The notes under the pieces: model-generated
Told to the model about the DNA's origin: nothing
Database searches by the model: none
Seen by the model: only the letters and a program-made list of their open reading frames with translations
Origin: Phorcus lineatus
Taxonomy: Eukaryota > Mollusca > Gastropoda > Trochida > Trochidae
Assembly (NCBI GenBank): GCA_921293015.1
Contig: OV121088.1
Coordinates: 37,386,836 to 37,450,835 of the forward strand
DNA: 64,000 bases
Reading direction: 5' to 3'
In this document: piece after piece, positions 16,765 to 64,000 of the stretch
Layout: every line of letters begins with the position of its first letter
Numbering within the stretch: the first letter of the stretch is position 1
Made by a program: the position numbers and the translations under genes

Positions 16765-16796
16765 ATCTGTCATTGTACTGGTAGAAAATGTTGGGG

Positions 16797-37240: not shown

Positions 37241-37244
37241 CAGG

Positions 37245-38128: not shown

Positions 38129-38150
38129 CTTTAATACACTGGAGTTGGGA

Positions 38151-38298
38151 AATCAATTAAGTGTCCTTTCAACGCTCCGCATGTTGGCATTTTCAAGGCA
38201 CTTATTTGTTTGCTTAATCCTTTTTGTATTAAAGTTTCCAATTCTCTTGACAAATATGACTTTTGTTATTTTAACGAGTTGATGTTCAGACTGTTAAA
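38151..38298 (+). repeat. split direct repeat B1
   Basis: 148 bp starting AATCAATTAAGTGTCC, repeated as B2 at 38528-38676 with a 1-bp length difference. Confidence 0.9.
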
Positions 38299-38470
38299 GT
38301 TATATTTTATTTGTTAAAATATATTTTGACATGTAAGTCATGAGTGGTCTCCCTTTGTACTTCATGCTTTCTCTAGTACTAGTATATACGGAGTTACCTC
38401 CCTTTCACGTTGTCATACGTTGCATTCAGAATCACGCCCGCATGGCGTCTTGTGTTCAAGCAATATATAT
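38299..38470 (+). repeat. split direct repeat A2
   Basis: Second copy of A1, directly abutting B1; essentially identical over 172 bp. Confidence 0.92.
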
Positions 38471-38527
38471 TTTCACCCATCCCTACCCTCCCAGTAGTAT
38501 TATTGGTTAGAGGTCAAGATTAGGGGG

Positions 38528-38676
38528 AATCAATTAAGTGTCCTTTCAACGCTCCGCATGTTGGCATTTTCAAGGCACTTATTTGTTTGCTTAATCCTTT
38601 TTGTATTAAAGTTTCCAATTCTCTTGACAGATATGACTTTTGTTATTTTTAACGAGTTGATGTTCAGACTGTTAAA
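38528..38676 (+). repeat. split direct repeat B2
   Basis: Second copy of B1, marking the right end of the element. The short spacer 38471-38527 contains TTTCACCCATCCCTACCC and belongs to neither repeat. Confidence 0.9.
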
Positions 38677-38775: not shown

Positions 38776-39709
38776 TTGACAGGTGGCGATAGGTTAATTA
38801 TGCGATTGTTGGATGTTTTTAAATTATCTGAAGACAAAGAAGAGCTATCTCGATTTCTAAGAAGAAAGGAATTGTTTGGAAATTGGGACGGAAAAATTTG
38901 TAGAAAGTGTGGGGTAGGGAAATTTTATTTATGTCGGGATTCAAGCTACAGTAAGGATGGTTATTGCTGGAAATGCAACAGACGTGACTGTAGTAAAAAG
39001 TTTTCCATTCGCCATAACTCGTGGTTTGAAAACAGCAAGCTTGATGCCGGCAAAATACTACTGTTGACTTATTGTTGGGTTTGGAAACTCCCTCAAGACT
39101 TTATACGACGGGAACTTGGAATTTCATCGTGCAACACCAGTGTTGACTGGTTCCATTTTTGCCGAGAAGTGTGCGTGTGTGTGGTAGATGAAGATTCGGA
39201 AAAGATTGGTGGTTTTGGACGAATCGTCGAGATAGACGAATCGAAATTTGGAAAAAGAAAATTCATTAAAGGAAAACGTGTAGAAGGACAATGGGTGTTT
39301 GGAGGGATTGACAGCTAGAGACTCAAAAGAGTGCTTTTTCGCATGCGTAGACAAGAGAGACTCAAGTACTCTTATTCCCATAATTCTGAAACACGTAAAG
39401 CCGGATACAACAATCATAAGCGATTGTTGGAAGGCATGCGATTGTTTAAAGGAGGAAGACTTCACTCATCTTAAAGTTAACCACTCGTTGCACTTTAAAG
39501 ATCCCGAGACTGGCGCCCACACAAATACGATCGAATCATCGTGGGGTGCCCTCAAGCGTTCACTGCCACGAACAGGCACGTATAAAACTTTATATTCTTC
39601 CTATTTCGAAGAATTTTGTGTGAGGAGGAAGTATCTGTTTGATACTGAAAACAAGTTTTCACAGTTCTTGGATTCAATAAAACGAGTGTACAACCCTCAC
39701 GGCCTTTAA
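38776..39709 (+). pseudogene. Merlin (IS1016/ISXO2-like) transposase, one frameshift
   Basis: ORF 38776-39318 has an N-terminal zinc ribbon (CRKCGVGKFYLC ... CWKCNRRDC) and the first catalytic Asp in VEIDESKFGKRKF, then EGQWVFGGI. The second ORF (39299-39709) continues with the second Asp in TIISDCWKACDC and the Glu in HTNTIESSWGALKRS. These are the DDE signature and spacing of Merlin/IS1595-type transposases. The frame breaks near 39310-39320. Inverted ends could not be identified with confidence. If the shift is real it is a dead copy. Confidence 0.85.
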
Positions 39710-40020: not shown

Positions 40021-40211
40021 TGTAGGGTTAGGTGCTCTACCACCAAACAACTGATACCATATTATATTGTTACGGTAACGGGAGTTACCTCCCTTGGGTT
40101 ATGCTGGCCGGATGTTCCGTGCGCTTGTACACACTCGGATCCACTGAGAAACGGAATAAACCTTGAACCCCCACAACTAATATGTTGTCACTTAGAAGAT
40201 ATAACTCCACA
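40021..40211 (+). repeat. 5' LTR
   Basis: 191 bp, TGTAGGGTTAGG...CTCCACA, includes GGGAGTTACCTCCC palindrome and a GAATAAA-type polyadenylation signal (GGAATAAACC near 40153). Confidence 0.95.
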
Positions 40212-40229
40212 TGGTGTCAGAAGTCGGGA
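40212..40229 (+). other. primer-binding site
   Basis: TGGTGTCAGAAGTCGGGA directly follows the 5' LTR; it resembles the complement of a tRNA-Leu 3' end, a known primer type in animal Gypsy elements. Confidence 0.75.
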
Positions 40230-40353
40230 TAGAGTTTTTCAGTGTTCTGACAGTAAGTGACATTCACGAACGTCTGTACTAGGGCGATGTACAAGGTGCA
40301 CGAAAACTGAAGGACTTATCGCAGAAAAACGCACGTGGTTTTAAAAATTCAAA

Positions 40354-42026
40354 ATGAGTGAATCTGAAGGGGATGAAAGGATTGTAGCTTCGGGTTCATC
40401 AGGACAAAACACTGTACAACCTAATGTGAACACTCCAATTGCCACTTATAGAGTGAATCCACCCGAACAGTTTAACTTCACAAAACCAGAATCATGGCCA
40501 AAATGGTCACGTCGTTTTGAGCGTTTCCGGCAGTCATCTGCGCTAGCCAAAGAGCCAGATGAGATGCAGATTAACTCACTTATATACCACATGGGAGATG
40601 AAGCAGAGGACATACTATCATCTTTAAAATTGACAACTGAACAATCAAAGTCATATAGAACTGTCACAGAAAAGTTTGATGGTCATTTTGTAATCTCTCG
40701 AAATGTGATATATGAACGTGCAGTATTCAATAGAAGAGGACAAGAGGAAAGTGAATCAGTGGACTCCTTCATTAACTCTCTTCACATTCTAGCTCGTTAC
40801 TGTGAATATGGTGTCCTCCATGACGACTTTATTCGGGACCGTATAGTAGTAGGGATTCGAGATTGTACCTTGAGTGCCAAAATGCAAGGTGATAGTAAAC
40901 TTACACTAGCCTCAGCAGTTCAGATGGCAAGACAGAAGGAAATGATTGCTCAACAGCAATCACAGCTGCGAAAACCAGAGATGAGTGCGTCTGTGGATGC
41001 AGTGAAATTTCGCAAACCTCCCAGAAATAGTTCTACAAAGAAATATTCAGGGAAATCGGGAAAGAAAGAACACTCTAATTCTACAAAGACAAAGAGAAAC
41101 TTTTGTCAACGTTGTGGCAGTAAACCCGCACACAAATGGGCTAAGTGTCCAGCGCGAGAAGCAACTTGCTATAAATGCAAAAAGAAAGGACATTTTAGTT
41201 CAGCTTGTTTAAACAGCAAGAACATCGACGAGTGTGTACTCGAAGATGAGACTGAAGTTGCCGAAGAATTCTTCCTTTATGAACTTGGGGACGGAAGTGA
41301 AGGTGAGAATGGTCCATGGGTCACAAATGTGCATGTGAATAGCACTGTCTTGAGATTCAAGATAGACTGTGGGGCAGATGTCACTGCAATACCTGAGGAA
41401 TCCTTTGACAAGTTGAAAGGCTGTACTCTCAGACAGACTAATAAACGTCTTCTAGGTCCAGCTAGAATAAGATTGGAAGTGCTTGGTGTCTTCACTCCTG
41501 AAATCAGAAAAGGAAACAAGGTTGTGAAACAGGACATTTATTTTGTGAAAAATCTGGACAAGTGCTTACTTGGCAGACCAGCAATTCAAGCAATGAATCT
41601 CTTGAAGTTCATCGACTCTGTTTCCGTCGATGAGGTAGAGGACGAATTTTCAATGCTATTCAAAGGGCTTGGTGAAATTCCAGGTGAATATGACATTGAA
41701 CTGAAGGATAATGCAGTACCCTATTCACTAAACACTCCAAGACGTGTTCCTATTCCTTTGTTGGATAAAGTAAAAAATGAGCTACAGAGGATGCAAGACG
41801 AGGGTGTGATTGAGACGGTCACTGAACCAACAGATTGGTGTTCTGGGATCGTAGTGGTTCCTAAGGGGAACGATCGTGTGAGACTAAGTGTTGATCTGAC
41901 TCAGTTAAACAACAACGTCAACCGTGAAATCTATACTATGCCATCAGTTGAGCATGTACTAGGTCAAGTCCGAGGAGCTAAGTTCTTCTCTCGCTTGGAT
42001 GCAAACTCTGGTTTCTATCAGTTGAA
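40354..42026 (+). pseudogene. gag-protease-RT (N-terminal part) of the Gypsy element
   Basis: ATG at 40354. Gag is followed by two CCHC knuckles (CQRCGSKPAHKWAKCP and CYKCKKKGHFSSAC). The aspartic protease motif is DCGADVTAIP, with Cys where Ser/Thr is usual. RT begins around PRRVPIPLLDKVKNEL and reaches the first catalytic Asp motif FFSRLDANSGFYQ, where the DNA transposon interrupts it at 42027. The ORF then runs on through transposon sequence to a stop at 42076, without meaning. Confidence 0.9.
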
Positions 42027-42217
42027 CACTCATTCTCAGCTAAAGGGCAAATTTCCAAATGTAGTTGTCAAAAAATAAACTTTGCAGATATGTCAAGAAA
42101 TGTTAAATTTAAAAAACTACATCATCTGTAGTTACCATATCTATCCTTGGGGGACCCAAATCGTACGTGATAATTGATCACTTGTGTCATCAATACAAAG
42201 GGTATAAATCAACCAAG

Positions 42218-43856
42218 TCAGATACGTTACGCGCACGGACCTGTTTCATTGCAAAATAAACATATATTTTTAGTAACTATTAATTTTGAATTGGTCTGTT
42301 GTCAGAAGAAGAGTTTGATCTATGGATAGGATGTAAATTTTGTTTAAGAAAATATCTAATCATTGAGACCTGTGGGCCATTACAAAGCCATATTTCAAAA
42401 CACATTTGTAAAACGTTTTAAAACAATAACTACAAAAACTACATTATTGCTGCAAATCCTTTTAGTGAAAAACCAACATTGTTATCTTTATGCAAAAGGC
42501 AATATCTATGAACACCCAATATATTTCTGGGTTTCTAAGGAACACAAACCTAAAACAATGAAACTCTTTATTGGTCAAAATGTAACGTAATTGATGTGAA
42601 CTATTGATAACCAAAGTTGTTAGTTGGTTAGTCTCCTATGTCAACCTCAAGAACTCTTCCAACATGCAATGTTCCATCATACATGGAAGCCAGACAACTT
42701 CAACAACTGGTATGCACGGCACAGGAAATGGCGAAAGAGCAGGTTCAGGAGCTTGTCCGGCGGCAGGTTCAGGAGCTTGTCCGGCGGCAGGTTCAGGAGC
42801 TTGTTAATTTTCTGGAAGAAAGTCAGGCAAATGCCTTAATTTCAGCTGAAAGTACTTGTAGTTCAAGTTAAAGAATTCAAAGAAGAAACTAAAACAATTA
42901 AATACGCCATACAAAAGTTTCATCAATTATGTGACGTAATTCATCAAATACGTTACGTAATTATCAAATACGTTATGTGATCATTCAAGTTTAACATTGT
43001 TTCTGTCAAAATAATTTACGTCTTAGCATGTAATCTGAAGCAACTCAAAATAAGATAAATATCTGAAAATAAGATAACTGCTTTAGAGTTCTTTTCAGCT
43101 AATTTCATAGCTTTCTCAATTACGTTAGGTATTCATCAAATACGTTATGCTTATAAATCGTCTAGTGTGGTCAAAATTGGTGACCCAATATACTCCATTT
43201 TGTCTTTTAGAAATCAATGAATATCATACATATAATTTGACATAATACAGATAGAAATTAAGATGAGAAAGAATCTGTCAGATGACACTTCCTACTTACC
43301 AATTTTGAGTGTTTTTTTCCGAACATCAAAGTCAGTGCAATGGTCCCCTTGGATGAATTCCGGAAGTAGATGATCAAATTGATAGGTAGAGTCTAATTTC
43401 TAACCCCACCGCAATCGGACTATGAAAGATGTTGTTAATCGCCAATGCATTACTGAATGTTATTAAAATAGTGTAACGTATTTGACGATAACGTATCTGA
43501 CAATGATTTCACAATTTTCATTCTGATGTCAAGCATTATATATTTCTAAGTTTAAGACTGGTCTTCCTAGATGAGTAACATGTTTTTCTATGCTTGAAGA
43601 GGCCAGAATGAAATGAACTTTGCTCAACCTGTGTTCCTCAACCATTAATGTGCGTAACGTATCTGACGAAAATCAGCGTGCCCACTGGCATTTCTGTTGG
43701 AACTTATCGTATAACATTTTTTCTGGTCTCCAGTTAATAATGTTTGGACAAGTTATTGATTCCTCATATGTAACACAATTGTTAAGGTTATTTTGTTTGC
43801 GCCATTGGTTTGATTCTGTAGATTCTTAAGTATATGAAAATCCATAACGTATCTGA
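42218..43856. promoter_or_regulatory. array of TCARATACGTTA motifs, direct in left half and inverted in right half
   Basis: Direct: 42218-42229, 42944-42955, 42964-42975, 43116-43127 (variant TCAATTACGTTA), 43136-43147. Inverted: 43474-43485, 43489-43500, 43655-43666, 43845-43856. Such mirrored arrays in CACTA-type elements bind the transposase-accessory protein; that role here is inference. Confidence 0.6.
42638..42871 (+). CDS. short repeat-containing ORF inside the CMC-like element
   Basis: 77 codons. Contains three copies of a 24-bp repeat (42740, 42764, 42788) encoding QVQELVRR, an amphipathic coiled-coil repeat with surrounding helix-favouring sequence. Not recognised as a transposase. 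It could be a captured exon or the tail of the lost transposase; equally it may not be expressed. Confidence 0.35.
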   Translation: MSTSRTLPTCNVPSYMEARQLQQLVCTAQEMAKEQVQELVRRQVQELVRRQVQELVNFLEESQANALISAESTCSSS

Positions 43857-44247
43857 TGTGAAATTTGGGGACAAGTGAACTTTTGAATATCAAATATTTT
43901 TTACTGGGCTATTGTCTTACGAACTGCCGAATTTTATTACACATGGTTGTTATGTACCATAAAACACTGAAATATTTCGACTATCATTCCAAATTAGAGT
44001 ACTATCCTTGTATCAAACAACACACCATGCAGAGGGACATGTCTTTTCGTGATTTTTCGTGACCCATTAATCGTTTTTAGTGAAACAAACTATATAAACT
44101 TACCTATAAGTGATAAATATTTCCTTTACCCCATCAAGGGGCATAACATAAGCAAGGATTAACATATCAAAATAGAATATTAACGATGTTATAATAATGG
44201 GACAGTGATTCAAGTGGTTTTGCCTTTTATGTGAGAATGAGTGTGAA

Positions 44248-46556
44248 GCTGTCAGAGAAGTCATCTAAACTCACAACATTTATAACCCCTTTCGGAAGGT
44301 TTTATTTCCGAAGACTTCCTTTTGGGATCTCAAGTGCTCCGGAGGTTTTCCAGAGAAAGATGTCTCAGATTCTCGAAGGCTTACCAGGTGTTATCTGTCT
44401 CATGGATGATATCCTGATCTACGGATTAACTCAGGAAGAGCATGACGCCCGTCTTGTGAAAGTTCTCAGAAGACTCGCTGACAGCAAGGTCACTTTGAAC
44501 AGCGAAAAGTGTGAATTCAGCAAAACCAAACTGAAGTTTGTTGGACATGTGATTAGTGCTAGTGGCGTTGAACCGGATCCTGAAAAGGTTGCGGCTATTC
44601 AAAACATGAAAGCTCCCACAGACAAAACTGAGCTGAGACGATTCCTCGGTATGGTGAACCAAATGTCCAAGTTTTCAGATCAGCTTGCAGAGAACACAAA
44701 ACCTTTGAGAGAACTTTTACAGAAAGATTGTGCCTTCTACTGGGGCGACAAGCAACAGTCTGCTTTTGATGAGATCAAGCAAGGCATTTGCACTGCGCCA
44801 ACGTTAGCTCTCTACGATCCGGGGAAGGATACTATGGTATCCACTGATGCATCATCATACGGCATTGGAGCTGAGCTCAAACAGAAACAAGAAGATGGAA
44901 CATGGAGACCAGTCATGTTCGCTTCCCGATCGTTGACTGAAACCGAGCAGAAATACGCTCAAATCGAAAAGTAAGCATTGGCGATAACCTGGGGAACAGA
45001 ACGTTTCAATAACTTCCTACTTGGAAAACACTTTCAAGTAGAGACTGATCATAAGCCATTGATCCCAATTCTTGGATCTAAAAGTTTTAATGACTTGTCG
45101 CCGAGACTTCAGCGTTTCAGAATGCGCCTGATGCGATACAGCTATACCGTTTTCTACACTCCAGGCAAAAACTTGGCTGTCGCCGACACCTTGTCAAGAT
45201 CACCTGTGGACAGTGGTCCTTTCCTGGATGTATTGAACTTTGAGCGAGAGACTCAACTCCATGTTGATTCAATTGTGAACCAATTGCCAACATCTGACTC
45301 GAAACTGTCGGAAATAGCCAGTGAGCAGAAGAAAGTGTATGGCAAAATCATCAGCTATGTACAAGATGGATGGCCATCTTACCATTTACTGCACTCGGAA
45401 GAAAAACATTTGCATAAAGTTAGACATGAACTCTCAGTAGCAAATGGGTTGCTATTGAAGGGCAGCAGGCTGGTGATCCCTCCAGTTCTCCGCACAGAGA
45501 TATTATCAAAGATTCACGCAGGTCACCAAGGTGTTCGGAAATGTAGAGAGTGTGCATACAATGCAGTGTGGTGGCCAGGCTTGAGTGCTGAAATCAAATC
45601 TACAGTGGAAAACTGTAAAGCGTGTTCTAAGTACAGAACAAATCCGATAGAGCCTTTGTTACCAACTCCATTACCAGAGAGACCGTGGCAGAGGTTGGGG
45701 ACTGATTTGTTTGAACTTAACAAGTCCATGTACTTGTTGGTGATTGACTATTATTCACGATATATTGAATTGGTGAAGTTGTCATCGACAACCTCAGCAA
45801 ACATTATCAAGGCCTTGAAGAGTATCTTTTCCAGACACGGGATACCAGAGACCATGATATCAGATAATGGGCCACAGTACTCCAGTGCTGAGTTCAGAGA
45901 CTTTGCCCATGCATACAACTTTGTGCATACTACCTCTAGCCCATTGTATCCAAAGAGTAATGGTGAAGCGGAGCGAGCTGTTCGCACTTGCAAAAACCTT
46001 TTGCAGAAAACAGACTGCCCACACCTTGCCATGCTTGAATACAGAGCAACTCCAGTATCGTGTGGCTTATCACCCGCAGAGCTACTTATGGGTAGAAAGC
46101 TGAGAGCAAGTTTGCCCAACCATCCATTAAAATTGGAGCCTACACCACGGAGAGATCAGGAATTCCAGATTCATGAATCTCAGAGAAAGGCCGAAATGAA
46201 AGCAAACCATGACCGCCGTCACGGTGCGTGAAATCTACCAGACTTAAAGCCAGGCGATCCAGTGTGGGTAAACAAATGTGAGTCAAAAGTGGTGAAGAAG
46301 GCGGGAACACCGAGATCATACATTGTTTCTACTCCTTCCGGAGAGGTCAGACGGAACAGGTCAGACTTAAAAGTAATCCCGTCGACTCCAGTGAAATCTA
46401 TGATCTCAACCCCTGAGGTCGAACCATGTCCTCCAAGTGTTGTAAATAATAACACTAACATTCCATCCACACTCATAGCTCCAAATACACCTAGTCCGAA
46501 CTGTGTTAAAACCAAGAGTGGAAGAGTGACAAAACCACCAAAGAGACTGGATCTTT
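44248..46556 (+). pseudogene. RT (C-terminal)-RNase H-integrase of the Gypsy element, two nonsense codons
   Basis: RT resumes after the insertion with ITPFGRFYFRRLPFG and the active-site CLMDDILIYG. RNase H has VSTDASSYGIGAE and ETDHKPLI. The integrase has an HHCC finger (HAGHQGV ... CKACSKY), then DDE residues in LGTDLFEL, ISDNGPQYS and NGEAERAV, and a C-terminal GPY/F-like PGDPVWVNK. The frame is continuous apart from a TAA at 44972-44974 after QIEK and a TGA at 46229-46231 after RRHGA, both single-base type changes. Final stop near 46556. Confidence 0.92.
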
Positions 46557-46926
46557 GAAATGCCTTTATTGCACAATATGTTTACGTGCAATTTTGGTTG
46601 AACTAGTTTTGTTGTAGTTATTACTAGTTAACTGTTTGAATTCGAAAGAGTGTTTATATTGTTTACGTAAACAGTTGTATAAGTCTACAACACTACCAAT
46701 GAGGGTTTAAAAGTTTTATTGTTAAAAGCTTTTAGATTTGTAATGATATTACCATCTATTTTGTTTTGGTTATGTCTTTATAAAATATTTGAAGGATAGT
46801 TCTTGAAAATATTTTCATGACAACTGTTTAGAATATTTTGAAGATGTTATATTTTAGTTTCAGTAAAAAGGTAAAGAAATAACCTTTTGAAATGTTAATG
46901 ATCAAGTTAAACTTTTGATCTACCTC

Positions 46927-46936
46927 GAAAGGGGGA
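46927..46936 (+). other. polypurine tract
   Basis: GAAAGGGGGA immediately before the 3' LTR; primes plus-strand DNA synthesis in LTR elements. Confidence 0.8.
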
Positions 46937-47122
46937 TGTAGGGTTAGGTGCTCTACCACCAAACCACTGATACCATATTATATTGTTACGGTAACGGGAG
47001 TTACCTCCCTTGGGTTATGCTGGCCGGATGTTCCGTGCGCTTGTACACACTCCACTGAGAAACGGAATAAACCTTGAACCCCCACAACTAATATGTTGTC
47101 ACTTAGAAGATATAACTCCACA
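46937..47122 (+). repeat. 3' LTR
   Basis: 186 bp; lacks a 5-bp stretch present in the 5' LTR near CACACTC, otherwise near-identical. Confidence 0.95.
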
Positions 47123-48773: not shown

Positions 48774-49862
48774 TTAAGAAAATAGGGGTTTTCCTCTTTT
48801 AACCCTTTCACTCAAAATGTCTGGAATAACAGCAGACTTGTAGAACATTGTCAGCTTAAGAAGTACAGATTTCCATAATTTCTCATCAAAGAAAATTCTT
48901 TCCACAGAGTAACCCTTTAGTGTCCAGACAAAAAAGTCACACCACTTTCTTCTCGATATTGCCATTTGCCCCTGAACTTGGTAATAATATGGATGATTTC
49001 TTTTGAGATGTACACTGTCATTTTCAACTGTTCAAAAAAATCCTTTCTGTTGAGCTGCTTCTTTTGAGGTTAGTAACCTTGAAGCGTATGGGCATTTGAT
49101 TTCCAGTACACCACTATGTTCACTACAGTGAGGACAGTTAAGCAATGCATCGGGACGACTTCCAAGGTATGGCAGGTCTGGTCTGACAAGTAATCCACAT
49201 GAATGCACTTTCATTCCTGGGTGACTCTTTTGAATTATCTTCCTGTACACACGGCAAGCAGCAGGTTCATGCTGACGACCCCAACGTAACTCTTTACTGT
49301 CAAACTCTTTGTATCCCATGATGCGTTTAAGTGTGCAATCAGGTGGAGTTGTATCTTTCAACGTCCAAATAGGACCAAAATTTGAGCTAGTTAGTCTTCC
49401 ATATCTTGCATACTTCCAGTTTTCATTTTTATTTTGCCCCCTAGTTTTCTCCTCAATAACACGACACTGGTCTTCAGTAACTGTTAGCGAATTGAAGTAT
49501 CTATCAAAGGTACCTCTGCAGGTTTCACTTTCCAAATCTGAATTGTCCGTGTATGTGAAGTCCACTTTATGAAGTGGCTCCAACCTGTCAGTTTCATCAG
49601 GGATATTGTGTGAGCCATCTACAGCCAGCAACAAAGCAGCATGTGGTGCTGTGTCTTTTAATTTGGAAGCAAAATTTTTAATATCAATTGGCTTGACTTT
49701 GTCTAAGTTTCCAATTCTTTTTGACATCGTTTCACGGTCATCTACTTTGTGAGGGAGGTCACTCTCAGTTTCAACTTCAAGAGACTTGTACTTCTTAAAG
49801 ATTAGATTTTGAGACTTTTTTGGGCTTAACTGTCTTTTTCGTGGCTTGTTCCACGTGTTTGA
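48774..49862 (-). pseudogene. YqaJ-type (lambda-exonuclease fold) nuclease, C-terminal exon with one nonsense codon
   Basis: Open minus-strand frame from an AG acceptor (49864-49863) through SNTWNKPRKRQLSPKK to MSKRIGN (49727) and on to an in-frame TGA at 49034-49032; the same frame continues to a stop at 48774. Nuclease motifs: RLTSSNFG, WGRQHEPAA, the metal-binding Asp in LGSRPDAL, the ExK in GVLEIKCPY, and, past the stop, YYYQVQGQMA. These match the YqaJ viral-recombinase family, which in animals is found with SAP and SWIM domains in mobile-element-like genes. The N-terminal SAP/SWIM exons expected to the right are not seen. A single stop between ExK and the Gln motif breaks the enzyme. 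Confidence 0.85.
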
Positions 49863-49891
49863 CTCGCGGGAAATTTAAAGTTGAGTTAGAA

Positions 49892-50347
49892 ATGGCGATG
49901 ATCAAACCAACTTGGGGTAGGCTTTTCACAGAAAAAGAAAATAATTATCATGGCGCAGTTACATCTTTGGCAGCAGCAGAAGCGCTCATAAAAGACTACG
50001 AGCTTGCTATGCAATCACACTATGTTGTTGTGAGAGAAACGAGGAATTTTGGTCATTTTGGTATGTTTTCGAAAGCATTGAAATATTTTACACTCAACAA
50101 TGTCTTCTATAATATCCTCGTCATTCAAATTACTATTGTATGTATATATTTATGTATTTGTTTATTACATGTAGGTGAAAATGTTCCAGATTTATCAGGT
50201 GAACACACTGTGAAACTTGTAGATGACGGAAAAATAAGAAAAGGTACCAAAATCAAGAACAACGGTGTTCCTTTCATGTCAACAGGACTGAAGTTTATGG
50301 AGTGTCACCAGGGGTCCAGACGAAAACGATCAAAATTATTTGAAGAA
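49892..50347 (+). pseudogene. N-terminal exons of the Mutator-type transposase gene
   Basis: Exon 49892-50060 (ATG, GTATG donor) and exon 50175-50347 (TGTAG acceptor, GTATGT donor) join in phase and encode MAMIKPTWGRLFTEKEN... then NNGVPFMSTGLKFMECHQGS followed by a KRSK basic run. The GVPF...G.K..xCxxG pattern is the N-terminal region of animal MULE/SWIM proteins. Start is the first Met after the divergent YqaJ exon, 30 bp away. The exons that should follow, up to the first catalytic Asp, are not recognisable in the next 3 kb. Confidence 0.5.
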
Positions 50348-53300
50348 GTATGTTTTCCTAACAAAGCCACATAATTAAAGCATCACTTAATAGAAAAGTC
50401 CAGGTCAAGTTTTCACACATGATTACTCTAAATCTTCAATGCAGATATTAAGAATAAATGTATAAGAAAGTAAACCATATTCTAGCAGCCATAGTATTTA
50501 GACATACCTATTATCATTATTTCGTGCGAGTTCTTCATTGATATAGTTGAACATTCAGAGAAAAATGGAGAAAAACCATTTGTTTTTAAAACAAAATTTA
50601 TTCAAAGACATTTGAAGTCACAAAGGAAACACAAACTATCTTTTGAGACAGATAAAATAATTTTTATGAAAGTTAACATAACAGAACACACTTACACAAG
50701 GAAAGTTGCCCACGAATCTGAGAAAATTTATTAACAATACCATTGGCTTTTTAAATTATGTTAGTTCAATAAAAGGTACTCCAGGTGAAATAGATCATAC
50801 ATATTCTTAAGTTTCAGATGATGATGTTAAAGAAAGAAAACGGATAGAATCAAGTTATATAAAAAAATCAATCCATAACAGATGGTTGTTACGATGATAA
50901 ACAATGCTCACATTACAATCTACTTGATAGCTAGGTGATATGGGATTTAACGCTGCTTTCAACATTTTTTCACTTAAATCGCGGCTGCTTGTATTATTGC
51001 AGGGAGAACCACCATTCTTGATCCAAAGACAAACTCGCTAACCACTGCGCTATCCCAACTCAATTGATAGTGAGGGAAGCGTACACAAAATTGGTGATGG
51101 GTTAAAGTACTAAATAATAACAAGAGGAAGTAATCATAACATATCCTGCAAAATTGGTTGTCATTTTTCACAACATTTTCCTAGAAACAAAACAGAACAA
51201 GGGCAGTAACTGAAAAAATAACAATTTGGAATTAATGTTATCTAAAACTCTGTCTAGATATTAAAAGAGAATATTAACGACGTTCCGTTTAATAACATAT
51301 TTATGAAACGAGTGTGTGGTTTGGTATTTAACAAGCGAGTTCGATACCGATACCATTCACGAGATTCATTAATATGTAATTATACGGGACTGAGTTTAGT
51401 ACTTTATTTATTACTGGCTGAATTATATCAAACAAAAATCATGAAAATCGCCGGGATAGCCATTGTCGCTGCACCGCTAACATTGTGACGTCATGTGACG
51501 TCAATCAACACGCGATGTTAAATGTGTAATAACTTTGAAGATTTATTAAACGGCGGTATGTTCAACGAGAGAGTAATAAATAGAGGATATTATATGAGTG
51601 GCCATGACATACTATGTTTACGAAACTAGTGCCGAATATTAGTATTTCCCGAGCAAGAGCGAGGGATATACTGATATTAAGGCACGAGTGTCGTAAACAT
51701 AGTATGTCATGGACAGAAATATGATATTCTGTTTATTACCGAAGTCGAGAAATCAAAGAAACTAATCAGAATCAGCATCCAAGCATAGGCATAGGCGCAT
51801 TTGAAACACAACGTCATAGGCGAACTGTGACATCAAAGCATTGTTTTTTACGTGACGTCACAATGAAAAAGTGATATGTTGCCCTAGGGCATCGTATGAA
51901 AAATATGAACCCCGATATGATTGACCTCGTAGGTAATAAATACTCTTAGACCACATTAAAAAATTTATAATTCCATATAAAATATTTCAGAGAAAAAGGG
52001 CGATATAGTTGAATAACTACTGGAATAACTTTTAAAGTAATCCTATTTTTTATCCATGCAATATTTTTTTATGTCTTAGAATTAACGATTCCTAAATATT
52101 AATATGCTGAATTGTGCCATTTCACTCATGTTTGTGATCACCATCATATCCCCATTAATATTAATAATATTTCAAAATGTTATTTTCAAAAATCAACTTG
52201 CACGTTTTTCTGTATATCTATGATGAACTTGAAATTTAACAAGCCAAAAAATTTGAAATTCAACAAGCCCAAAAAAACAAACTATCTTTAATCAATGACT
52301 TATTACGATTTGTTTTCCCAAACACCTTTTTTTTAAAAAAGAATCGATATAACTTCTTGGAATCAGCATGTCATACCAATTTTGATCAAAATCAAATGAT
52401 CAGTTGAAAGTTCTTAACCAGCATGACTTGTGAAAACTTTGTAAAAGATAAACCAAAGAAATATTTCAAAAGTTGACAAAATGCAAAATTTACAAAAAAT
52501 ATTTTTACAGAAATTGGTGAACATGACACTGTTTTGACCAAAAATAGATTATTTTAGAAGTTGTGCGTCAGACAAGATTTTTCGCAACAGTTTTCTAAGA
52601 GATTATCCTTTTGTCAAATAATTTTTTTTTTTTACAGAAATATTTTAAAAATTGTTATTAATGTACATGACTGGCAAAACTATCAAAATTAGGTTAGTTC
52701 AAAAGTTACTCCATAAATCTTTTACAAAAGTCATAAGTTCAAATCAAACAAAAAATTCATAAATACTTAGAAGATATTATCAAAATAGCTAAGAAATACA
52801 CATCAGTAGATTTATCTGAATTTCCATGACAAATTTGGATTGAAATAAATCATTAGTGCACACTATATCATTTACAGACGTCCGTGAAAATCACCTTATG
52901 TAATACAGAGATACAGTTCAAAATATCGTAACAATTGTTCAAGTAAGAGTTAAACTTTGCCCAAGAACAGACTTGACATAGGATATATTAATTTCACAAG
53001 TAAATGGCATTGAAAAAAGATGGCATCATTCAAATTTTCTAAATTCCCACTTCTCACAAACGTAAAAATACACTTGTTATCGAATCTGCAAATGCCGAGG
53101 AGTGTACATACATGTTATGAATATATTGTTGAAAATTACAAATATTCCAACATGGTTTAAAAAGTTAGCCAGTAAAATATGCTAACATAAAAAAAAATTC
53201 GTTATATTCTTTGTATAAAACTGAACTGGATATCAATTTATGAATTTACCAATATACATACTAGTTGTGCTGGTGATGTATAATTTGATTACTGTTCTAC

Positions 53301-53409
53301 AAAAAAAGTGAATGAATGAGTTATTCTACGATGCCTTTTGGGCAATATTTCAGCCATTGGCGACATTTACAATAAAAAGGAAAGACATTAACTTTAATTT
53401 AATTTCCAG
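50348..53409. other. AT-rich intron/deleted region with one fold-back MITE
   Basis: No exon was recognised. 51602-51712 is a fold-back element: CCATGACATACTATGTTTAC pairs perfectly over 22 bp with 51691-51712, then imperfectly toward the centre. The surrounding 51470-51900 has several TGACGTCA palindromes. The region should hold the first two catalytic residues of the transposase if the gene were whole. Confidence 0.5.
51602..51712. repeat. fold-back hairpin repeat
   Basis: Two ~54-bp arms with a 22-bp perfect outer stem; likely a small fold-back MITE or the centre of a larger one. Confidence 0.7.
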
Positions 53410-54316
53410 ATGCCAAAATATACCTGTGTGACTTTCACCGAAAACAATCCTGGCAACCATAAGAATCAAGTGTTCAATGATGAAGAAGAAATCATGAAGA
53501 TCCTGAATGTACGCAAAAAAATCCATACTTTTATATCTTTAAGAAAGGTTTTCCAAATTATCCAATACATTATACAAAAAAGCATATTATCACTTTTGAT
53601 TACACTTCAAATTCATTCTAGTGATTTAGTCATTTTGTTAATATTGAATTGGACATTGATAGTAAGTAGCAAAAGTAAAATTTCACTTAAAGGATTGTTT
53701 TACATTTTTTCAGCCAGTTCATCTTAACTCCTGTCCGCATTTTTTAAATAACCGTCATTAGCATATCACATGACATATTTTCAAAGTGCCATGGCCCCTA
53801 CTTCTCAATTAGTAAATATTGTTTTAATTTTTTTGTCATCTTTTATGATATACTCATAATATTAAGTATTCTTCATCAGAGAGTAGCTGCTTCAATAACT
53901 GAGGAGGAATTTGAAAGAAAGATCTTAAGAACTCAAGAATCTGGACAGATCATCCACAGCTCAGAAAGTACCTTGATACCCATTGGCTTTGCAATGAAAA
54001 ATACAAGGTATTTTCTTTTTTCATCTAAAGACATTTACAATTAAATAAACCCTAGCTGTTTATCCCTGTTAAATTTATAGCGAAAACATCTCACTTGTAG
54101 CAATTACAGGTTAATGTTTTTATTCATTGCATACATATTTATGTTTCAGAAATGGGTGTGTGCTTTCCGGGTCGATGGCATGACTGTCAATACGACAAAC
54201 GGCACAGAGGCCATGAACAAGATATTCAAGTACGACTACGTAAAGCCACAGAAGTCAACTACACTGACAGAATTAGTTCTAATTCTAATTCAATTTCTGA
54301 AAGATCAGAAGCGCAA
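53410..54316 (+). pseudogene. Mutator-like transposase (MULE) core exons, frameshifted
   Basis: Exon 53410-53508 reads AKIYLCDFHRKQSWQP, the C-x2-H helix motif of MULE transposases, then needs a frame change to HKNQVFNDEEEIMKIL. Exon 53880-54007 reads RVAASITEEEFER, then in a shifted frame RIWTDHPQLRKYLDTHWL. Exon 54150-54316 reads KWVCAFRVDGMTVNTTNGTE, with the third catalytic residue as Glu in GTEAMNKIFK. Borders are AG/GT. Two frameshifts and the lack of the first catalytic Asp residues make a functional transposase unlikely. Confidence 0.78.
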
Positions 54317-54543
54317 GTAAGTTTTAGTACCTCTTTGCATTCATTTTATCCTACTTACTGATGTATAAGGTACAATTTAGATGTTTTAATAATTCAAACC
54401 CAACAACTGTATAACCACCAAAAATTAAACACTTCTGCAAACACTAAATGCTAACTGTTATGCCATTCAATGCCTCAATACTGAAAACCCTTTTCTGCAA
54501 CAGTTATACTTACTTCATACTTACAAAAGTTTATCTCAAACAG

Positions 54544-55250
54544 ATACATTGATGCAAACGTCAAGTCATCTGTGGGTTGGCGAAAGCAAGGACCAGGAGT
54601 GCCGGATATGGCTGCACACAAGCCACACCATCTCAAACATCTGTTTAGGGATATTGATACTGCAGCTACATCTATCACCAAGGATGCCCTCCAACAAGTA
54701 GGGGAGCAGCAGTTTATTGTGAGGTCCTCTTCATTTGGAAACGCTACTTATGAGGTGGACCTCACTGTTCCCAAATGCTCCTGCAGGCATTTTGCTAGGA
54801 CGAGATCCCTATGTAAACACTTTGGAGCAGTGTTTAAATACAAGGCATTTTCCTGGAACAGCTTGCCAGACTTGTACAAAAATCACCCCATATTTACCAT
54901 CGACTATGGGTGTGTTGAGGGGATCAGCTGTGCTGATGAACCAGTAACGTCAGATATCAGTGTCCAAAGCTGGCCAAAGGGTACCTGCAAACGGATTGAA
55001 AAGAAAAGTAAAGGGAAGTCATTTTCAACTTGTCAACAACAATTCAGAGAAAAATTGACAATTTTGCTTAATTTGAGCTATCTCTGCAAAGACAATGAAA
55101 CTCTTGAGAAATCTACAAAGACTCTAAGCGACTTGATCGGCAACATTGAACTTTGTTGTAAAAGGAATGTTCTAATCCTTGAAAACGATGAGGGAAAATC
55201 TCAAGGAAAAAAAGAATGTCTTCGAAAAAGAAAAAAATTCAAGAGTCGAA
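54544..55250 (+). CDS. SWIM zinc-finger exon of the MULE/OTU gene
   Basis: Joins in phase to the preceding exon (K/YIDANVKSS) and is open for 235 codons to a GTAAGA donor. It contains FIVRSSSFGNATYEVDL then the SWIM finger CSCRHFARTRSLCKHFGAVF (CxCx8CxH), which follows the catalytic core in Mutator transposases and binds DNA or protein. The C-terminal third is Lys/Ser-rich and ends KKFKSR, a possible nuclear localisation stretch. No break within this exon. Confidence 0.82.
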
Positions 55251-55461
55251 GTAAGACCTGTAACACACCAGCAAAACGTTTCTTTTCCTAAATTTTATGA
55301 GATTTTCTTTTCCAGTTTTATATAATCTAAACTTAAGACAAAGAAACATGTGTAACTAGTTGGTAAACGTTTAAAAACCAGAAAAATAAAAACTTGATGT
55401 ATCAAATAATCGAAGGCAACGAGTGCACATTTCTAAAACTTTTTTTCTTTTCACTTTTTAG

Positions 55462-56465
55462 GAAGAAGCCAAAACACCCTGGAAAAAGGTAAATTAATAA
55501 ACCACAAGTAACGCTTAAAAGAATCTTCACCTTTGCACATCTGTATCATCATCCAACATGAAAGAAACTTTAATGAGAAAGAAATACAATTTCTCGTATG
55601 AATATTCTTATTCCATAAATAAATACATACGAAGGTAAGACTTGTGAAACCAAACTTCAGTTAAGAAAAACATCGATGGCATTAATTTTTTTATCATTCA
55701 CTTTCCAGAAGTAGTTGAAGAAGAATGCATTGACATGCAGATTACAATTTCGGATGAAGACGAAAGTAGGTTATATCAAAATTTGATGTCATGTTTTTGA
55801 AACATCATAAAACTGTAATATTGTTTACTATTACCAAGTACTTATAAACCTTTTAGCATCTAATGAACAGATCAAATTATTTAAGCTTCAAGCGCCTTAA
55901 TTAACGAGATTTATAACAGGTGAGCAAAGCCACGAATATCTAAGGCTTAATTTCAGTTGAAATGTTACAATGCTCACATGGGCAAAATCGAAAGTAAGCC
56001 CTGGGCGTAAATACGAGCATTCCTGGTAGCGGGATGTCATATCATTGTACTGAACTTTTTATTTCACATCTTCAGACCTTCATGACGAGACGGATTCATG
56101 CGCAAAAAACACAACAATGGAAGATGGTGGTAATTTCTTTTTGAAACCTGTATCAATGTTTAAATAAGCAAATTCTGTACAGAGGACTTGATATTGACAT
56201 TCAAACCACAGATCAATGGAATCTGAACTAAACTTCTCAATAGAAAAAATTACAAATAAAGAGTTATATAAAAATGGGAGCTTTCTGCTTTCAGATGATT
56301 GTGGAGAAGAAAGGCCCTGGTAGGATATTTTTGAATTTCGTCAGTCAATATCAAATAATAAAAACTTATCTTCAGAACTATGACTATCCTAATTCGATAA
56401 TATTTTTCAACTTTCAGATCATCATACTGAAACAGATAGTCTTGAAACATCAATAGAAGAAAATG
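55462..56465 (+). CDS. acidic micro-exons linking SWIM and OTU parts
   Basis: Small exons 55462-55488, 55709-55765, 56076-56129 and 56418-56465 all have AG/GT borders and matching phase. They encode an acidic linker (EVVEEECIDMQI, NLHDETDSCAKN, DHHTETDSLETS). The last two exons and the starts of their following introns (GTAATTTC) resemble one another, pointing to tandem duplication of an exon. A fifth candidate at 56295-56319 would create a stop when joined and is left out. Confidence 0.55.
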
Positions 56466-57145
56466 GTAATTTCTTGTCAAAATGCTGTGTCTAAATGAAA
56501 TTATGTGCAAATGATGCAATGGGATGTTAACTTTTAATGTAACCTAATCATCTTACCTGCATTTGCCAAGTTCAATTAGGGTAAACATTTAAGCTAACTT
56601 ATTTATTTTATTTAGTAACTTAAAATTCATGAAATCTATGTTGAATTTGATTGATTTCATATATGTCCAACCCATAATGTAGATGACATTAAATCATGTT
56701 AGTTATGCAACAGGTGTTTATTTAAGATAATTTTTCCTCGTTAGAGAGTATAAACAAAACTATTTCAAAAAATCATTTTTTATGTGTTAAGCTACTGAAA
56801 GGTATAAATTTAGATTCTAATGATTCATGTTGACAATTTTTTACCATCACATTTTAACTATAGAGTGCAGAAGATGTGAATGGCACAGTAAACAAAATTT
56901 CAAAATCTATTTTAAAATCCTTGCTCTGGTTAAAAATCTGTAACAATCAGGACATTTTTCAAAACCTTTAATTACTTAATCATCAATTAAAAGGTAAATC
57001 AGTACATTTAAGCCTGCATTTTAATATTTTTTAATATTCTGGAGGTTGCTTATTTATTTTGATGTAAAGTTAACCATTTCTGAGGAGTTTGATTCACACC
57101 TTTTAGCAAAAAGCATAAACTGACCTTTATTTCCCTTTGTACCAG

Positions 57146-57870
57146 ACATACGAGTTGCTGTCTTGGAGTCCTTGACAGCTGCTTCAGGGATTCATCATCA
57201 ACAACAAAGACTTGCAATGGTTGTTCAGGCAGCTGGGATGAGATTCAGAGATGAAACACCAGGCGATGGCAATTGTTTTTTTCATGCAATCATTGATCAG
57301 ATGGAACGGCTAGGTAAACAACTGCCTGGTGATCATCACAAACTGCGCAAGGACGTGTGCTCTTTCCTGAAAGAACACCCATACAATGTATGATTTTCTT
57401 GTCAATGATCCCCACCATACCATCATTATGTTGTTTAATATAATCGATAAGACAATTAGTACTTGATAATAACACCAGTTTATGGTAAAATGAGAAAATG
57501 AAGTTAACAAAAACACAACTAATCACTAACAAAAAAATTGTTTATTAATGATGAAGTATATTTATATTAAAGGAGAAAGGAGAACTACTTGCAAATTTTG
57601 TCTCGGAACCATGGGAAGAATACTTGAAGAAAATGTCATCTCCAGGCACTTATGTTGACGAATTGGTAGTGAGGACATCAGCCAAGGTCTTGAATGTGCC
57701 CTTAACCATATTCACAAGCTCCCAGGATGGAATGGATTCGGACACTCCACCCATCATCATTCCTGGAGAAGGTCCTCCATTGTTACTTGGACACTACCAC
57801 GAATACCACTACCAGTCCCTTGAAGCAAAGTCGAGAAGGAAAACTGTCTCCTGTAAACATCACAGTAAAA
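57146..57870 (+). pseudogene. OTU-type cysteine protease exons (left copy), splice donor lost
   Basis: Exon 57146-57387 contains the nucleophile motif PGDGNCFFHAIIDQM (Asp-x2-Cys of OTU deubiquitinases). Exon 57573-57870 joins in phase 0 and ends with the catalytic His region LLLGHYHEYHYQSLE. The two exons span a whole small OTU domain. At the end of exon 2 this copy reads CAGTAAAATTTAATTC, while the inverted copy has CAGTAAAAGGTAATTC, so the donor GT is lost here. OTU enzymes remove ubiquitin; a fusion to a transposase could protect it or act on host proteins (inference). Confidence 0.85.
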
Positions 57871-59356
57871 TTTAATTCAATAACTAGTATTAAGCAAAAA
57901 TCTTATCTAAATTGTGAAAGATATGATAAATTCCTCATATAAGATTTTTGCCTTAACAGGATGGAGAGGACAATTTACAATGACAAATTTATCCTACTTA
58001 TCTTAATCATACAATGAACTATATTCTTACAATGATACTTATAAACGCATGTTTATTTTTTCAGAACAGGGGTAATGGCCATTGAATCCAGGCAGCAGCA
58101 AACAGGTAAAGGCAGAATCTGTATTTGAAATGACATTAACAAATCTATTTTAACTAACTAATGACACTTGTTTAAGTTCCTTTACAAATATCAAGGAATG
58201 TTAGAGTGTGTAATTGTTTTCATACTATAGTGTAACAATTCTCATGTAATGTTATTCATTTGAACATGATTTTCTTTAAGTAAACAAAGACACATTGCCA
58301 ACCAAATACAAAAGGAATTTGGGGAAACACCTGCAAAAATTCAAAATGGTGAAAGAGAAATTGTGATACCCCAAAATCAACTACGTCAAGCAGTAAGTTT
58401 CTAAATGCTACCTGAAGCTTACTTTTGTAAACAATATGACATTATTTCATTATCATCATGTTTTATAATTGTTTGGTTGTTCTTAATAATAAATTCTCTT
58501 AATTGATAATTTTCTTATTTCACTACTGAAAAGATAATACAATGAACACCCATGCAAATAAAGTAGGTATAGAAACATGTTATGTTTTTAAATAAACAGT
58601 TTTGTTAACAAGGGTAAGCATCATTTTCCAAGAGTGATTTGAAATTGAACCACAGCATATCATCATTTTAACAACCATTTAGCTAGATAAAAATAATTTC
58701 TTTAGATATAAAGAAGTTGAAGGTTTCATGATTCACTTTAAAAACAAAAAAATTTAAACAATCTTGAATTTTTTCAACAAACTCCATTTCACTATGGTTT
58801 TAAAAATTTCATGATGTATGATAAAGGAACAATGAAAATTTCAATGTCAGAATTATTTTCAGATATCATCAGTTATTGAACACGACCTGAATGCCCTTCT
58901 AGCATTTCCAAGAGAAACAGAACCAGAAAATTGCCCTGATGAATTCAAACGACATTTGGATTTTTGTAAAGGCAAGAAAATAGATCATGACGAAAAGCTG
59001 TTCTACTTTGATGAAGTGGTAAGTATACTTTTATCCATGAAAGCTTAATTCTTAATCTTAATTTAACAGTTAAATTAGCAAATGAAAAAAAATGTGCTGG
59101 ATAACCAATGCTTTTAAGAAAGTTTTACTTATTTCACAAAGGTTTTATGTTATCTGTGTTAAGAAAAAAAGTAATTACGTTTCGAAGTTTCTCATAGTTT
59201 CTTACAACTATGAAGTTTGAGTGATCATTTAAAACTAGGCTTTCCAATACTAGGCAAACAGCAAAATTCCTTCACAAATCTACCCATTCAATTTCAATTC
59301 ATAAATCATTGAACATAAATCTAGTATGACCCATCTGCTTTGTATGTACTAGATTT
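57337..59356 (+). repeat. large inverted duplication, left arm
   Basis: 2020 bp that pair with 61980-64000 in reverse complement at well above 99% identity. Visible differences are a GG/TT pair at 57871, one deleted A at about 58284, and single substitutions near 58556 and 58892. The boundary at 59356/59357 is abrupt, inside the intron after exon 58863-59018. Confidence 0.97.
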
Positions 59357-60210
59357 ATCTCCTTAATCAGAAACAAACTCTGTAATCTGAAAATTTAAAT
59401 TTTTCCATTTCCTTCTTTTGTGTAGAAAAGGCAATCTTAGTAATATTCAAGCAATTCCTATCCTTATCTAATGCTTCACCTATCAATGATACACTTATTT
59501 CAATATACTCAAAGGGATACGCAATCCTCATGGATGAAGTTGAAGACAAACTGGTTGAGACCACTAAAGATAACAGGTAAGTAACTGCATTTCATTCAAG
59601 AGTCTATCACAGGATGAAGGTATGCGAGTGATCATGATCTATGAATACATGACAAAATTTTAACTTTTCAAATAATATTTTGCTTCTTTAACCAAATTTC
59701 CATTTCTTCCTTTTATACAAAATACAAAAATGGCTTGTTTTCCAATTTACAAAATGCATTCATAATGCGACAGCTTATGAACTATATTTTGATTAATAAT
59801 AATTCTATAAAATTACTCAATTCTCAGTTTTTCACTTTTCAGGATTTACAGCATACCAACTTCAAAAATGAAGTTGCCGTCATACATCAAAGATACGTAA
59901 GTCAGGATTGCTTACTCTGAAAATAGTAAACACACACATGATGTACAGTGTTGTTAATGTGGACCTGATTTATCATCACGTGATTGCATGAGGAGGTAAA
60001 AGTTAATAATTTATTTAGTAATACAAAATTTCAGCGTCAAGTTAACTTGCTATATTAACATAAAACCAACTAAATGTTTTATAAAAAAATATTTTTCCTT
60101 TCAGGTCAAAGTACTGTCAGAAAGTACTGGAGTACTACATAATGCACAAAGTCATGATGAAACTATTGGAGGAGTTATATATGCTATTAAGTAAAAAGTG
60201 TATTCCTTAA
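58065..60210 (+). pseudogene. C-terminal exons of the MULE/SWIM/OTU gene
   Basis: Exons 58065-58105, 58281-58392, 58863-59018, 59431-59576, 59843-59896 and 60105-60210, ending in TAA. Readable parts include KQRHIANQIQKEFGETPAKI, SSVIEHDLNALLAFPRE, ILVIFKQFLSLSNASP and SKYCQKVLEYYIMHKVMMK. No domain recognised. Exon 58281 lacks one A that the inverted copy has, which throws this copy out of frame; all other joins are in phase. The last three exons lie in the spacer of the inverted duplication and exist only once. Confidence 0.6.
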
Positions 60211-61979: not shown

Positions 61980-64000
61980 AAATCTAGTACATACAAAGCA
62001 GATGGGTCATACTAGATTTATGTTCAATGATTTATGAATTGAAATTGAATGGGTAGATTTGTGAAGGAATTTTGCTGTTTGCCTAGTATTGGAAAGCCTA
62101 GTTTTAAATGATCACTCAAACTTCATAGTTGTAAGAAACTATGAGAAACTTCGAAACGTAATTACTTTTTTTCTTAACACAGATAACATAAAACCTTTGT
62201 GAAATAAGTAAAACTTTCTTAAAAGCATTGGTTATCCAGCACATTTTTTTTCATTTGCTAATTTAACTGTTAAATTAAGATTAAGAATTAAGCTTTCATG
62301 GATAAAAGTATACTTACCACTTCATCAAAGTAGAACAGCTTTTCGTCATGATCTATTTTCTTGCCTTTACAAAAATCCAAATGTCGTTTGAATTCATCAG
62401 GGCAATTTTCTGGTTCTGTTTCTCTTGGAAATGCTATAAGGGCATTCAGGTCGTGTTCAATAACTGATGATATCTGAAAATAATTCTGACATTGAAATTT
62501 TCATTGTTCCTTTATCATACATCATGAAATTTTTAAAACCATAGTGAAATGGAGTTTGTTGAAAAAATTCAAGATTGTTTAAATTTTTTTGTTTTTAAAG
62601 TGAATCATGAAACCTTCAACTTCTTTATATCTAAAGAAATTATTTTTATCTAGCTAAATGGTTGTTAAAATGATGATATGCTGTGGTTCAATTTCAAACC
62701 ACTCTTGGAAAATGATGCTTACCCTTGTTAACAAAACTGTTTATTTAAAAACATAACATGTTTCTATACCTATTTTATTTGCATGGGTGTTCATTGTATT
62801 ATCTTTTCAGTAGTGAAATAAGAAAATTATCAATTAAGAGAATTTATTATTAAGAACAACCAAACAATTATAAAACATGATGATAATGAAATAATGTCAT
62901 ATTGTTTACAAAAGTAAGCTTCATGTAGCATTTAGAAACTTACTGCTTGACGTATTTGATTTTGGGGTATCACAATTTCTCTTTCACCATTTTGAATTTT
63001 TGCAGGTGTTTCCCCAAATTCCTTTTGTATTTGGTTGGCAATGTGTCTTTGTTTTACTTAAAGAAAATCATGTTCAAATGAATAACATTACATGAGAATT
63101 GTTACACTATAGTATGAAAACAATTACACACCCTAACATTCCTTGATATTTGTAAAGGAACTTAAACAAGTGTCATTAGTTAGTTAAAATAGATTTGTTA
63201 ATGTCATTTCAAATACAGATTCTGCCTTTACCTGTTTGCTGCTGCCTGGATTCAATGGCCATTACCCCTGTTCTGAAAAAATAAACATGCGTTTATAAGT
63301 ATCATTGTAAGAATATAGTTCATTGTATGATTAAGATAAGTAGGATAAATTTGTCATTGTAAATTGTCCTCTCCATCCTGTTAAGGCAAAAATCTTATAT
63401 GAGGAATTTATCATATCTTTCACAATTTAGATAAGATTTTTGCTTAATACTAGTTATTGAATTACCTTTTACTGTGATGTTTACAGGAGACAGTTTTCCT
63501 TCTCGACTTTGCTTCAAGGGACTGGTAGTGGTATTCGTGGTAGTGTCCAAGTAACAATGGAGGACCTTCTCCAGGAATGATGATGGGTGGAGTGTCCGAA
63601 TCCATTCCATCCTGGGAGCTTGTGAATATGGTTAAGGGCACATTCAAGACCTTTGCTGATGTCCTCACTACCAATTCGTCAACATAAGTGCCTGGAGATG
63701 ACATTTTCTTCAAGTATTCTTCCCATGGTTCCGAGACAAAATTTGCAAGTAGTTCTCCTTTCTCCTTTAATATAAATATACTTCATCATTAATAAACAAT
63801 TTTTTTGTTAGTGATTAGTTGTGTTTTTGTTAACTTCATTTTCTCATTTTACCATAAACTGGTGTTATTATCAAGTACTAATTGTCTTATCGATTATATT
63901 AAACAACATAATGATGGTATGGTGGGGATCATTGACAAGAAAATCATACATTGTATGGGTGTTCTTTCAGGAAAGAGCACACGTCCTTGCGCAGTTTGTG
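61980..64000 (-). repeat. large inverted duplication, right arm (runs off the window)
   Basis: Reverse complement of the left arm. It continues to the last base, so the true arm is longer than 2021 bp. The spacer between arms is 2623 bp. A near-perfect palindrome this size may be a recent rearrangement or an assembly artefact. Confidence 0.97.
62318..64000 (-). CDS. second copy of the OTU exons, intact where the left copy is broken
   Basis: Minus-strand exons: 63950-64000 (cut by the window end, end of the OTU nucleophile exon), 63466-63764 (OTU His exon with intact GT donor at 63465-63464), 63232-63272, 62944-63056 (with the extra A that keeps the frame) and 62318-62474. This copy has the OTU His region LLLGHYHEYHYQSLE. 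It lacks the three last exons found once at 59431-60210, because the arm ends first, so its 3' end is either new sequence in the spacer or missing. The 5' part lies beyond 64000. Confidence 0.7.

What the first reader, a model, noticed from the sequence alone, without database searches (positions are those of the whole stretch)
53410..60210. Candidate new system: transposase, SWIM finger, acidic linker and OTU protease in one spliced gene
Exons with matched phase link a Mutator-type core (YLCDFH, GTEAMNK), a SWIM finger, acidic micro-exons, an OTU cysteine protease (PGDGNCFF, HYHEYHYQSL) and a C-terminal part without known domain. Plant Mutator-type elements are known to carry Ulp1-type proteases; an OTU fusion with a unique C-terminus in an animal is less familiar to me. 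A transposase able to remove ubiquitin could protect itself or alter host control.
Basis: partly seen in the sequence, partly recalled or inferred. Interest (0 to 1): 0.74.

Follow-up and report, generated by a model that had tools for sequence, protein, structure and literature searches.

The report
Decayed Mutator-type transposase–OTU protease gene
In this transposon-rich, probably animal DNA, pieces of a Mutator-type jumping-gene enzyme, a SWIM zinc finger and a ubiquitin-removing (OTU) protease do look like one spliced gene, but this copy is broken, and jumping genes that carry such proteases have been reported before.

Summary
The observation mostly holds. From the NGTEAMNK exon through the SWIM exon, four micro-exons and two OTU exons, AG/GT sites join into one chain of 524 codons without a stop; the other two frames hold 27 and 35 stops. 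SWIM and OTU pass Pfam's cut-offs. Between SWIM and OTU lie exactly four phase-matched micro-exons; 0 of 500 shuffles reach four. So SWIM and OTU very probably lie in one gene.

But the copy is decayed: the CDFH exon and the next change frame inside, the OTU exon lacks a donor, exon 13 differs by one base in length. An inverted copy (61980-64000, 99.5% identical) splices this part cleanly. Upstream exons (49892-50347) match ALS2CR8 below cut-off. The first half of the DDE core and terminal repeats were not found.

An animal Mutator element listed with an 'Ovarian Tumour Gene' is in print (MuDR-6_HM, PMC6446971); Ginger1 and Helitron transposons also carry OTU. Verdict: real, a new member of a known kind. 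Copy number is untested; the genome search did not complete.

The parts
49892..50060 (+). candidate first coding exon N1, starts with ATG
   Evidence: open with N2 after splicing, GT donor
50175..50347 (+). candidate exon N2, start of an ALS2CR8-like domain
   Evidence: N1+N2 match PF15299 at E 0.0015, 18.9 bits, below the cut-off of 28.9; link to the rest of the gene is inferred from strand and order
53410..53508 (+). E1, transposase core with YLCDFH; reading frame broken
53880..54007 (+). E2, core; entry frame and exit frame differ
54150..54316 (+). E3, core with NGTEAMNK
54544..55250 (+). E4, SWIM zinc finger exon
   Evidence: PF04434 E 4.8e-05
55462..55488 (+). E5, micro-exon 27 nt, phase 1-1
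55709..55765 (+). E6, acidic micro-exon 57 nt
56076..56129 (+). E7, acidic micro-exon 54 nt; its end lies in a 36-nt repeat, 78% alike, shared with the end of E9
56295..56319 (+). E8, possible exon of 25 nt that breaks the frame; left out of the chain
   Evidence: 12 stops in the chain if included
56418..56465 (+). E9, acidic micro-exon 48 nt
57146..57387 (+). E10, first OTU exon with PGDGNC
   Evidence: PF02338 E 3.9e-12 over E10+E11
57573..57872 (+). E11, second OTU exon with HYHEYHYQSL; runs to a stop in this copy, no GT donor where the inverted copy has one
58065..58105 (+). E12, not joined in frame with both neighbours in this copy
58281..58392 (+). E13, one base shorter than in the inverted copy
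58863..59018 (+). E14
   Evidence: no Pfam family for E14-E17
59431..59576 (+). E15; of three nearby AG sites tried only 59431 keeps the frame
59843..59896 (+). E16
60105..60210 (+). E17, last exon, stop TAA 60208-60210
57337..59356 (+). left arm of an inverted duplication
   Evidence: 2021 alignment columns, 99.5% identical, 9 mismatches and 1 gap
61980..64000 (-). right arm: second copy of the end of E10 to E14 and part of the next intron, runs off the window; E11-E14 splice in one open frame

Best explanation
It is a decaying copy of a many-exon gene derived from a Mutator-type (MULE) transposase whose single protein carried, in order, perhaps an ALS2CR8-like DNA-binding start, a DDE core, a SWIM zinc finger, an acidic linker, an OTU cysteine protease and an end of no known family. 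In its intact form the start and the SWIM finger would hold DNA, the core would cut and join element ends, and the OTU part would remove ubiquitin from the transposase or from repair and chromatin proteins at the site. Shown: SWIM, OTU with Cys and His motifs, one open spliced chain between them, frame breaks in the core, an inverted sister copy. Inferred: membership in MULE, the start exons' link to the rest, DNA binding, deubiquitination and every step of function.
For: 524-codon open chain E3-E11, other frames 27 and 35 stops. Four phase-matched micro-exons, 0 of 500 shuffles reach four. Pfam SWIM and OTU above cut-off; OTUD3 and OTUD5 in PDB. CDFH and NGTEAMN motifs in the right order before SWIM (that these are MULE motifs is recalled). 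Frame breaks in E1 and E2, lost donor in E11 and length change in E13, with a sister copy that splices. A Mutator element listed with OTU, and other transposons with OTU, in print.
Against: No Pfam MULE match, even with the core read through with X at the two breaks. The first catalytic Asp was not found between 50348 and 53409. No terminal inverted repeats above shuffle level in three comparisons of 30 shuffles each. No transcript data, and no relatives outside the window: 0 of 4 scans gave a confirmed one; they cover viral and prokaryote DNA only.
Confidence: 0.72

Rival explanations
1. A host gene family domesticated from a MULE long ago: a DNA-binding deubiquitinase with no transposition, of which this is one broken paralogue beside another.
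For: 18 candidate exons, with AG/GT at the internal edges except the donor of E11 in this copy; no terminal repeats found; duplication at DNA level with introns kept; SWIM and OTU domains open while the core is broken. FHY3/MULE-derived genes are reported in Aplysia, Octopus, a sponge and a brachiopod (PMC10027918, passages).
Against: The copy lies among several transposons and is decayed; with two copies, selection cannot be measured.
Confidence: 0.2
2. Two neighbouring genes, a SWIM-type MULE fragment and an OTU gene, that only look joined.
For: The window is rich in transposons, and no transcript is at hand.
Against: Coherent phase through four micro-exons between the two parts; four are not reached in 500 shuffles.
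Confidence: 0.06
3. Part of the pattern is an assembly fault: allelic or chimeric sequence joined in inverted order, and frame breaks that are read errors. (Can hold together with the best explanation.)
For: Inverted arms 99.5% alike and a 4459-nt tandem duplication with 2 mismatches elsewhere in the window.
Against: 2623 nt without a repeat listed separate the arms; the arm differences are mostly substitutions, 9 of 10.
Confidence: 0.15

Closest known systems
MuDR-6_HM (Cnidaria, row 14 of the table in PMC6446971; HM stands for Hydra magnipapillata in PMC2836005)
   Same: Mutator-family element in an animal, listed with an 'Ovarian Tumour Gene' and, as I read the row, without TIRs (row seen as passages)
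   Different: its row gives one ORF and, as I read the columns, no zinc finger; here SWIM is present and there are many exons. The row does not itself say that OTU is fused to the transposase. Sequences were not compared: none was at hand
Ginger1 transposons (PMC2836005)
   Same: transposase with a C-terminal OTU domain in one protein
   Different: Gypsy-integrase type core; no SWIM named in the passages seen
Mutator elements with Ulp1 (plants, hydra, lancelet)
   Same: Mutator transposons that encode a ubiquitin-like-protein protease domain (PMC2836005, passages)
   Different: Ulp1 in place of OTU
Animal Helitrons/Helentrons with OTU
   Same: OTU carried by a transposon protein (passages)
   Different: Rep-helicase, rolling-circle elements

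Membership tests
Mutator/MULE transposase | [C/D]xxH and catalytic Glu motif (NGxEAxN) in order before the SWIM finger | tested here: met
   motif identity recalled, not from a call; the two motifs lie in exons with frame breaks between them
Mutator/MULE transposase | match to a MULE profile (Pfam) | tested here: inconclusive
   no match for E1-E4 read through with X; the piece may lie outside what the profile covers (recalled)
Mutator/MULE transposase | first catalytic Asp and N-terminal half of the DDE core | tested here: inconclusive
   not seen in 3 forward frames of 50348-53409; only one D.T[YFHW] match, followed by a stop; 7 ORFs there without a Pfam match
Mutator/MULE transposase | terminal inverted repeats | tested here: inconclusive
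   three flank comparisons at shuffle level, so none found; but the element's ends are unknown and several animal MULE groups are listed without TIRs
Mutator/MULE transposase | 8-11 bp target site duplication | not tested
   element ends unknown
SWIM zinc finger | CxCx(n)CxH and profile match | tested here: met
   PF04434, 23.2 bits, cut-off 19.6
OTU cysteine protease | profile match and catalytic Asp-Cys and His motifs | tested here: met
   PF02338, 47.2 bits, cut-off 23.3; DGNC aligned to OTUD3, HYQS aligned to OTUD5 HYNS; that these residues are catalytic is recalled
OTU cysteine protease | deubiquitinase activity | not testable with these tools
   needs protein
ALS2CR8 (CARF) domain | profile match above cut-off | tested here: not met
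   18.9 bits against 28.9, E 0.0015, profile positions 15-46 of 235 only

The most novel reading that the evidence does not exclude
A lineage of animal genes in which a transposase-derived DNA-binding body and a working deubiquitinase have been kept together by the host, with the OTU and SWIM parts under selection and the cutting core let go: a chromatin-bound deubiquitinase made from a transposon.
Probability: 0.15. Interest if true: 0.6.

Novelty: new member of a known kind. Interest (0 to 1): 0.3.

Why it matters
Transposons of at least three types (Mutator, Ginger1, Helitron) are reported with OTU or Ulp1 proteases, so the ubiquitin pathway may matter for transposition. An animal MULE-type gene with SWIM and OTU in one spliced reading frame adds a case with clear exon anatomy and gives a defined protein to test once an intact natural copy is found. 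By itself it does not open a new kind of system.

Tried and rejected
Homologues: 2 scans of viral contigs (12 and 4 pattern matches) and 2 of genome contigs (67 and 128 pattern matches) gave no confirmed relative; these collections hold viruses and prokaryotes, so this says little about an animal gene. NCBIfam had no match for 2 of 2 proteins; PHROGs gave only matches of E 0.16 or worse. PDB search of core+SWIM gave only weak matches, best E 0.04. Upstream core exons: 7 ORFs between 50534 and 53157 scanned with Pfam, 0 matches. TIRs as the meaning of the inverted arms: rejected as unlikely, since the arms hold OTU-to-E14 exons and the gene's last exons lie in the spacer. Literature: 10 of 10 searches used; none of the listings led me to a paper that describes SWIM plus OTU in one MULE transposase, but searches list only 20 of 27 and 20 of 567 papers, and most listed papers were seen as listing lines only. 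Passages alone were read of PMC6446971, PMC2836005, PMC6431247 and PMC10027918. A 2006 paper on WRKY-GCM1 zinc fingers and transposons (recalled) was asked for by DOI and is not held.

Full report
What is there. The window is 64 kb without N, rich in transposons. Pfam recognises a SWIM finger in the 54544-55250 exon (E 4.8e-05) and an OTU protease over two joined exons at 57148-57842 (E 3.9e-12), both above the curated cut-off. The nearest solved structure by sequence is OTU domain-containing protein 3 (E 3.8e-06); other matches among 17 are RNA-directed RNA polymerase L entries, a ubiquitin thioesterase, OTUD5 (E 0.00088 over residues 37-163) and EschOTU. The last OTU residues HYQSL align with HYNSV of OTUD5 when the second exon is searched alone, a weak hit by itself (E 0.69).

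Is it one gene. Exons at 54150-54316, 54544-55250, 55462-55488, 55709-55765, 56076-56129, 56418-56465, 57146-57387 and 57573-57842 have AG before and GT after them, save the right edge of the last, which was cut at 57842 for this test. Joined, they give 524 codons with 0 stops; the other two frames of the same letters have 27 and 35. I asked how many symmetric phase-1 micro-exons of 18-75 nt, open and with positive splice scores on both sides, lie between the SWIM exon and the OTU exon: four, all of them in the chain; the mean in 500 Markov shuffles is 0.28, and 0 of 500 reach four. The splice matrices are recalled and the limits were set after the exons had been seen, so this is strong but not blind. 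The three later micro-exons hold 21 Asp/Glu and 1 Lys/Arg in 54 residues, and the ends of two of them, with the start of the following intron, share a 36-nt repeat, 78% alike. The SWIM-to-OTU link is therefore well supported, short of a transcript.

In the first exon (53410-53508) the frame that reads YLCDFHRKQSWQ soon meets a stop and the frame that leads on is another; in the next (53880-54007) the frame that enters does not match the phase of 54150, while another frame does. A 25-nt piece at 56295-56319 has AG/GT edges but breaks the frame (12 stops in the chain if used). After the OTU exon, the plus copy runs into a stop, and the splice chain through 58065-59018 that works in the inverted copy has stops here. 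Exons 58863-60210 are again in phase with each other, if of three nearby AG sites 59431 is used, which is not the one with the better pyrimidine tract by eye. No Pfam family matches this end.

The inverted copy. 57337-59356 recurs in inverse order at 61980-64000, 2021 columns, 9 mismatches and 1 gap, with 2623 nt between the arms, and it reaches the window's end, so its true length is unknown. In that copy, exons equal to E11-E14 splice into one open frame of 203 residues. Two of the ten differences lie side by side at the end of the OTU exon and one is the gap in exon 13. The arms contain coding exons and the gene's last three exons lie in the spacer, so they are not plausible terminal repeats; a segmental inverted duplication or an assembly fault remain.

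The start. An ATG exon at 49892-50060 and an exon at 50175-50347 join in frame and match the start of the ALS2CR8 domain weakly, below the cut-off. They fit the place of a DNA-binding start but their link to the rest is inferred. Between them and 53410 I found no first half of the DDE core. A YqaJ exonuclease frame on the minus strand, 49032-49874, lies next to the ATG exon.

What it most likely is and does. The best reading is a decaying copy of a MULE-derived gene that once made one protein with core, SWIM, acidic linker and OTU. Cutting, DNA binding and removal of ubiquitin are inferred from the families. The MULE label rests on two recalled motifs and on the SWIM finger; no MULE profile matched. 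Whether it was an active transposon or a domesticated gene cannot be told without copy number and intact relatives; the search of the window's genome did not complete in nine tries.

Known ground. PMC6446971 lists, in a table seen as passages, MuDR-6_HM of Cnidaria with no TIR, one ORF, no zinc finger and an 'Ovarian Tumour Gene' (the column heads were seen in part, so the reading of the columns is mine). PMC2836005 reports OTU or Ulp1 at the end of Ginger1 transposases (all but Ginger1-1_BF have extra C-terminal domains), Ulp1 in Mutator elements of hydra, lancelet and plants, OTU in some animal Helitrons, and suggests a part for the ubiquitin pathway in transposition (passages). [quoted passage not shown] OTU with an animal Mutator-type element is thus known in kind; SWIM and OTU together, with this exon anatomy, I did not find in this library, which lacks most subscription papers.

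Noticed in passing
8041-12499 and 12494-16952: Tandem duplication of 4459 nt with 2 mismatches: a very young duplication or an assembly fault.
   Followed up: partly
34508-38676: A tyrosine-recombinase retrotransposon with split direct repeats (34508-34681 = 38297-38470, 100%; 38147-38298 ~ 38524-38676, 98%), with RVT_1 and integrase SAM matches above cut-off and a Phage_integrase match just below it (26.9 against 27.1 bits).
   Followed up: partly
38776-39709: Two ORFs overlapping in different frames; the second matches an ISXO2-like transposase domain (DDE_Tnp_IS1595, E 2.9e-17), the first has no Pfam match.
   Followed up: no
40021-47122: Gypsy-type element (integrase and RNase H matches above cut-off, gag just below it) with repeats of about 190 nt at its ends, 96.9% alike, whose polymerase region seems split by about 2.1 kb of other DNA (about 42075-44195); no clear ends of that insert found.
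   Followed up: partly
49032-49874, minus strand: YqaJ-like exonuclease frame (E 5e-11; stop to stop), divergent from candidate exon N1, whose ATG starts 18 nt beyond its edge; possibly part of another mobile element.
   Followed up: no
56295-56319: A 25-nt piece with AG/GT edges and acidic residues that breaks the frame; perhaps a decayed further acidic exon.
   Followed up: partly
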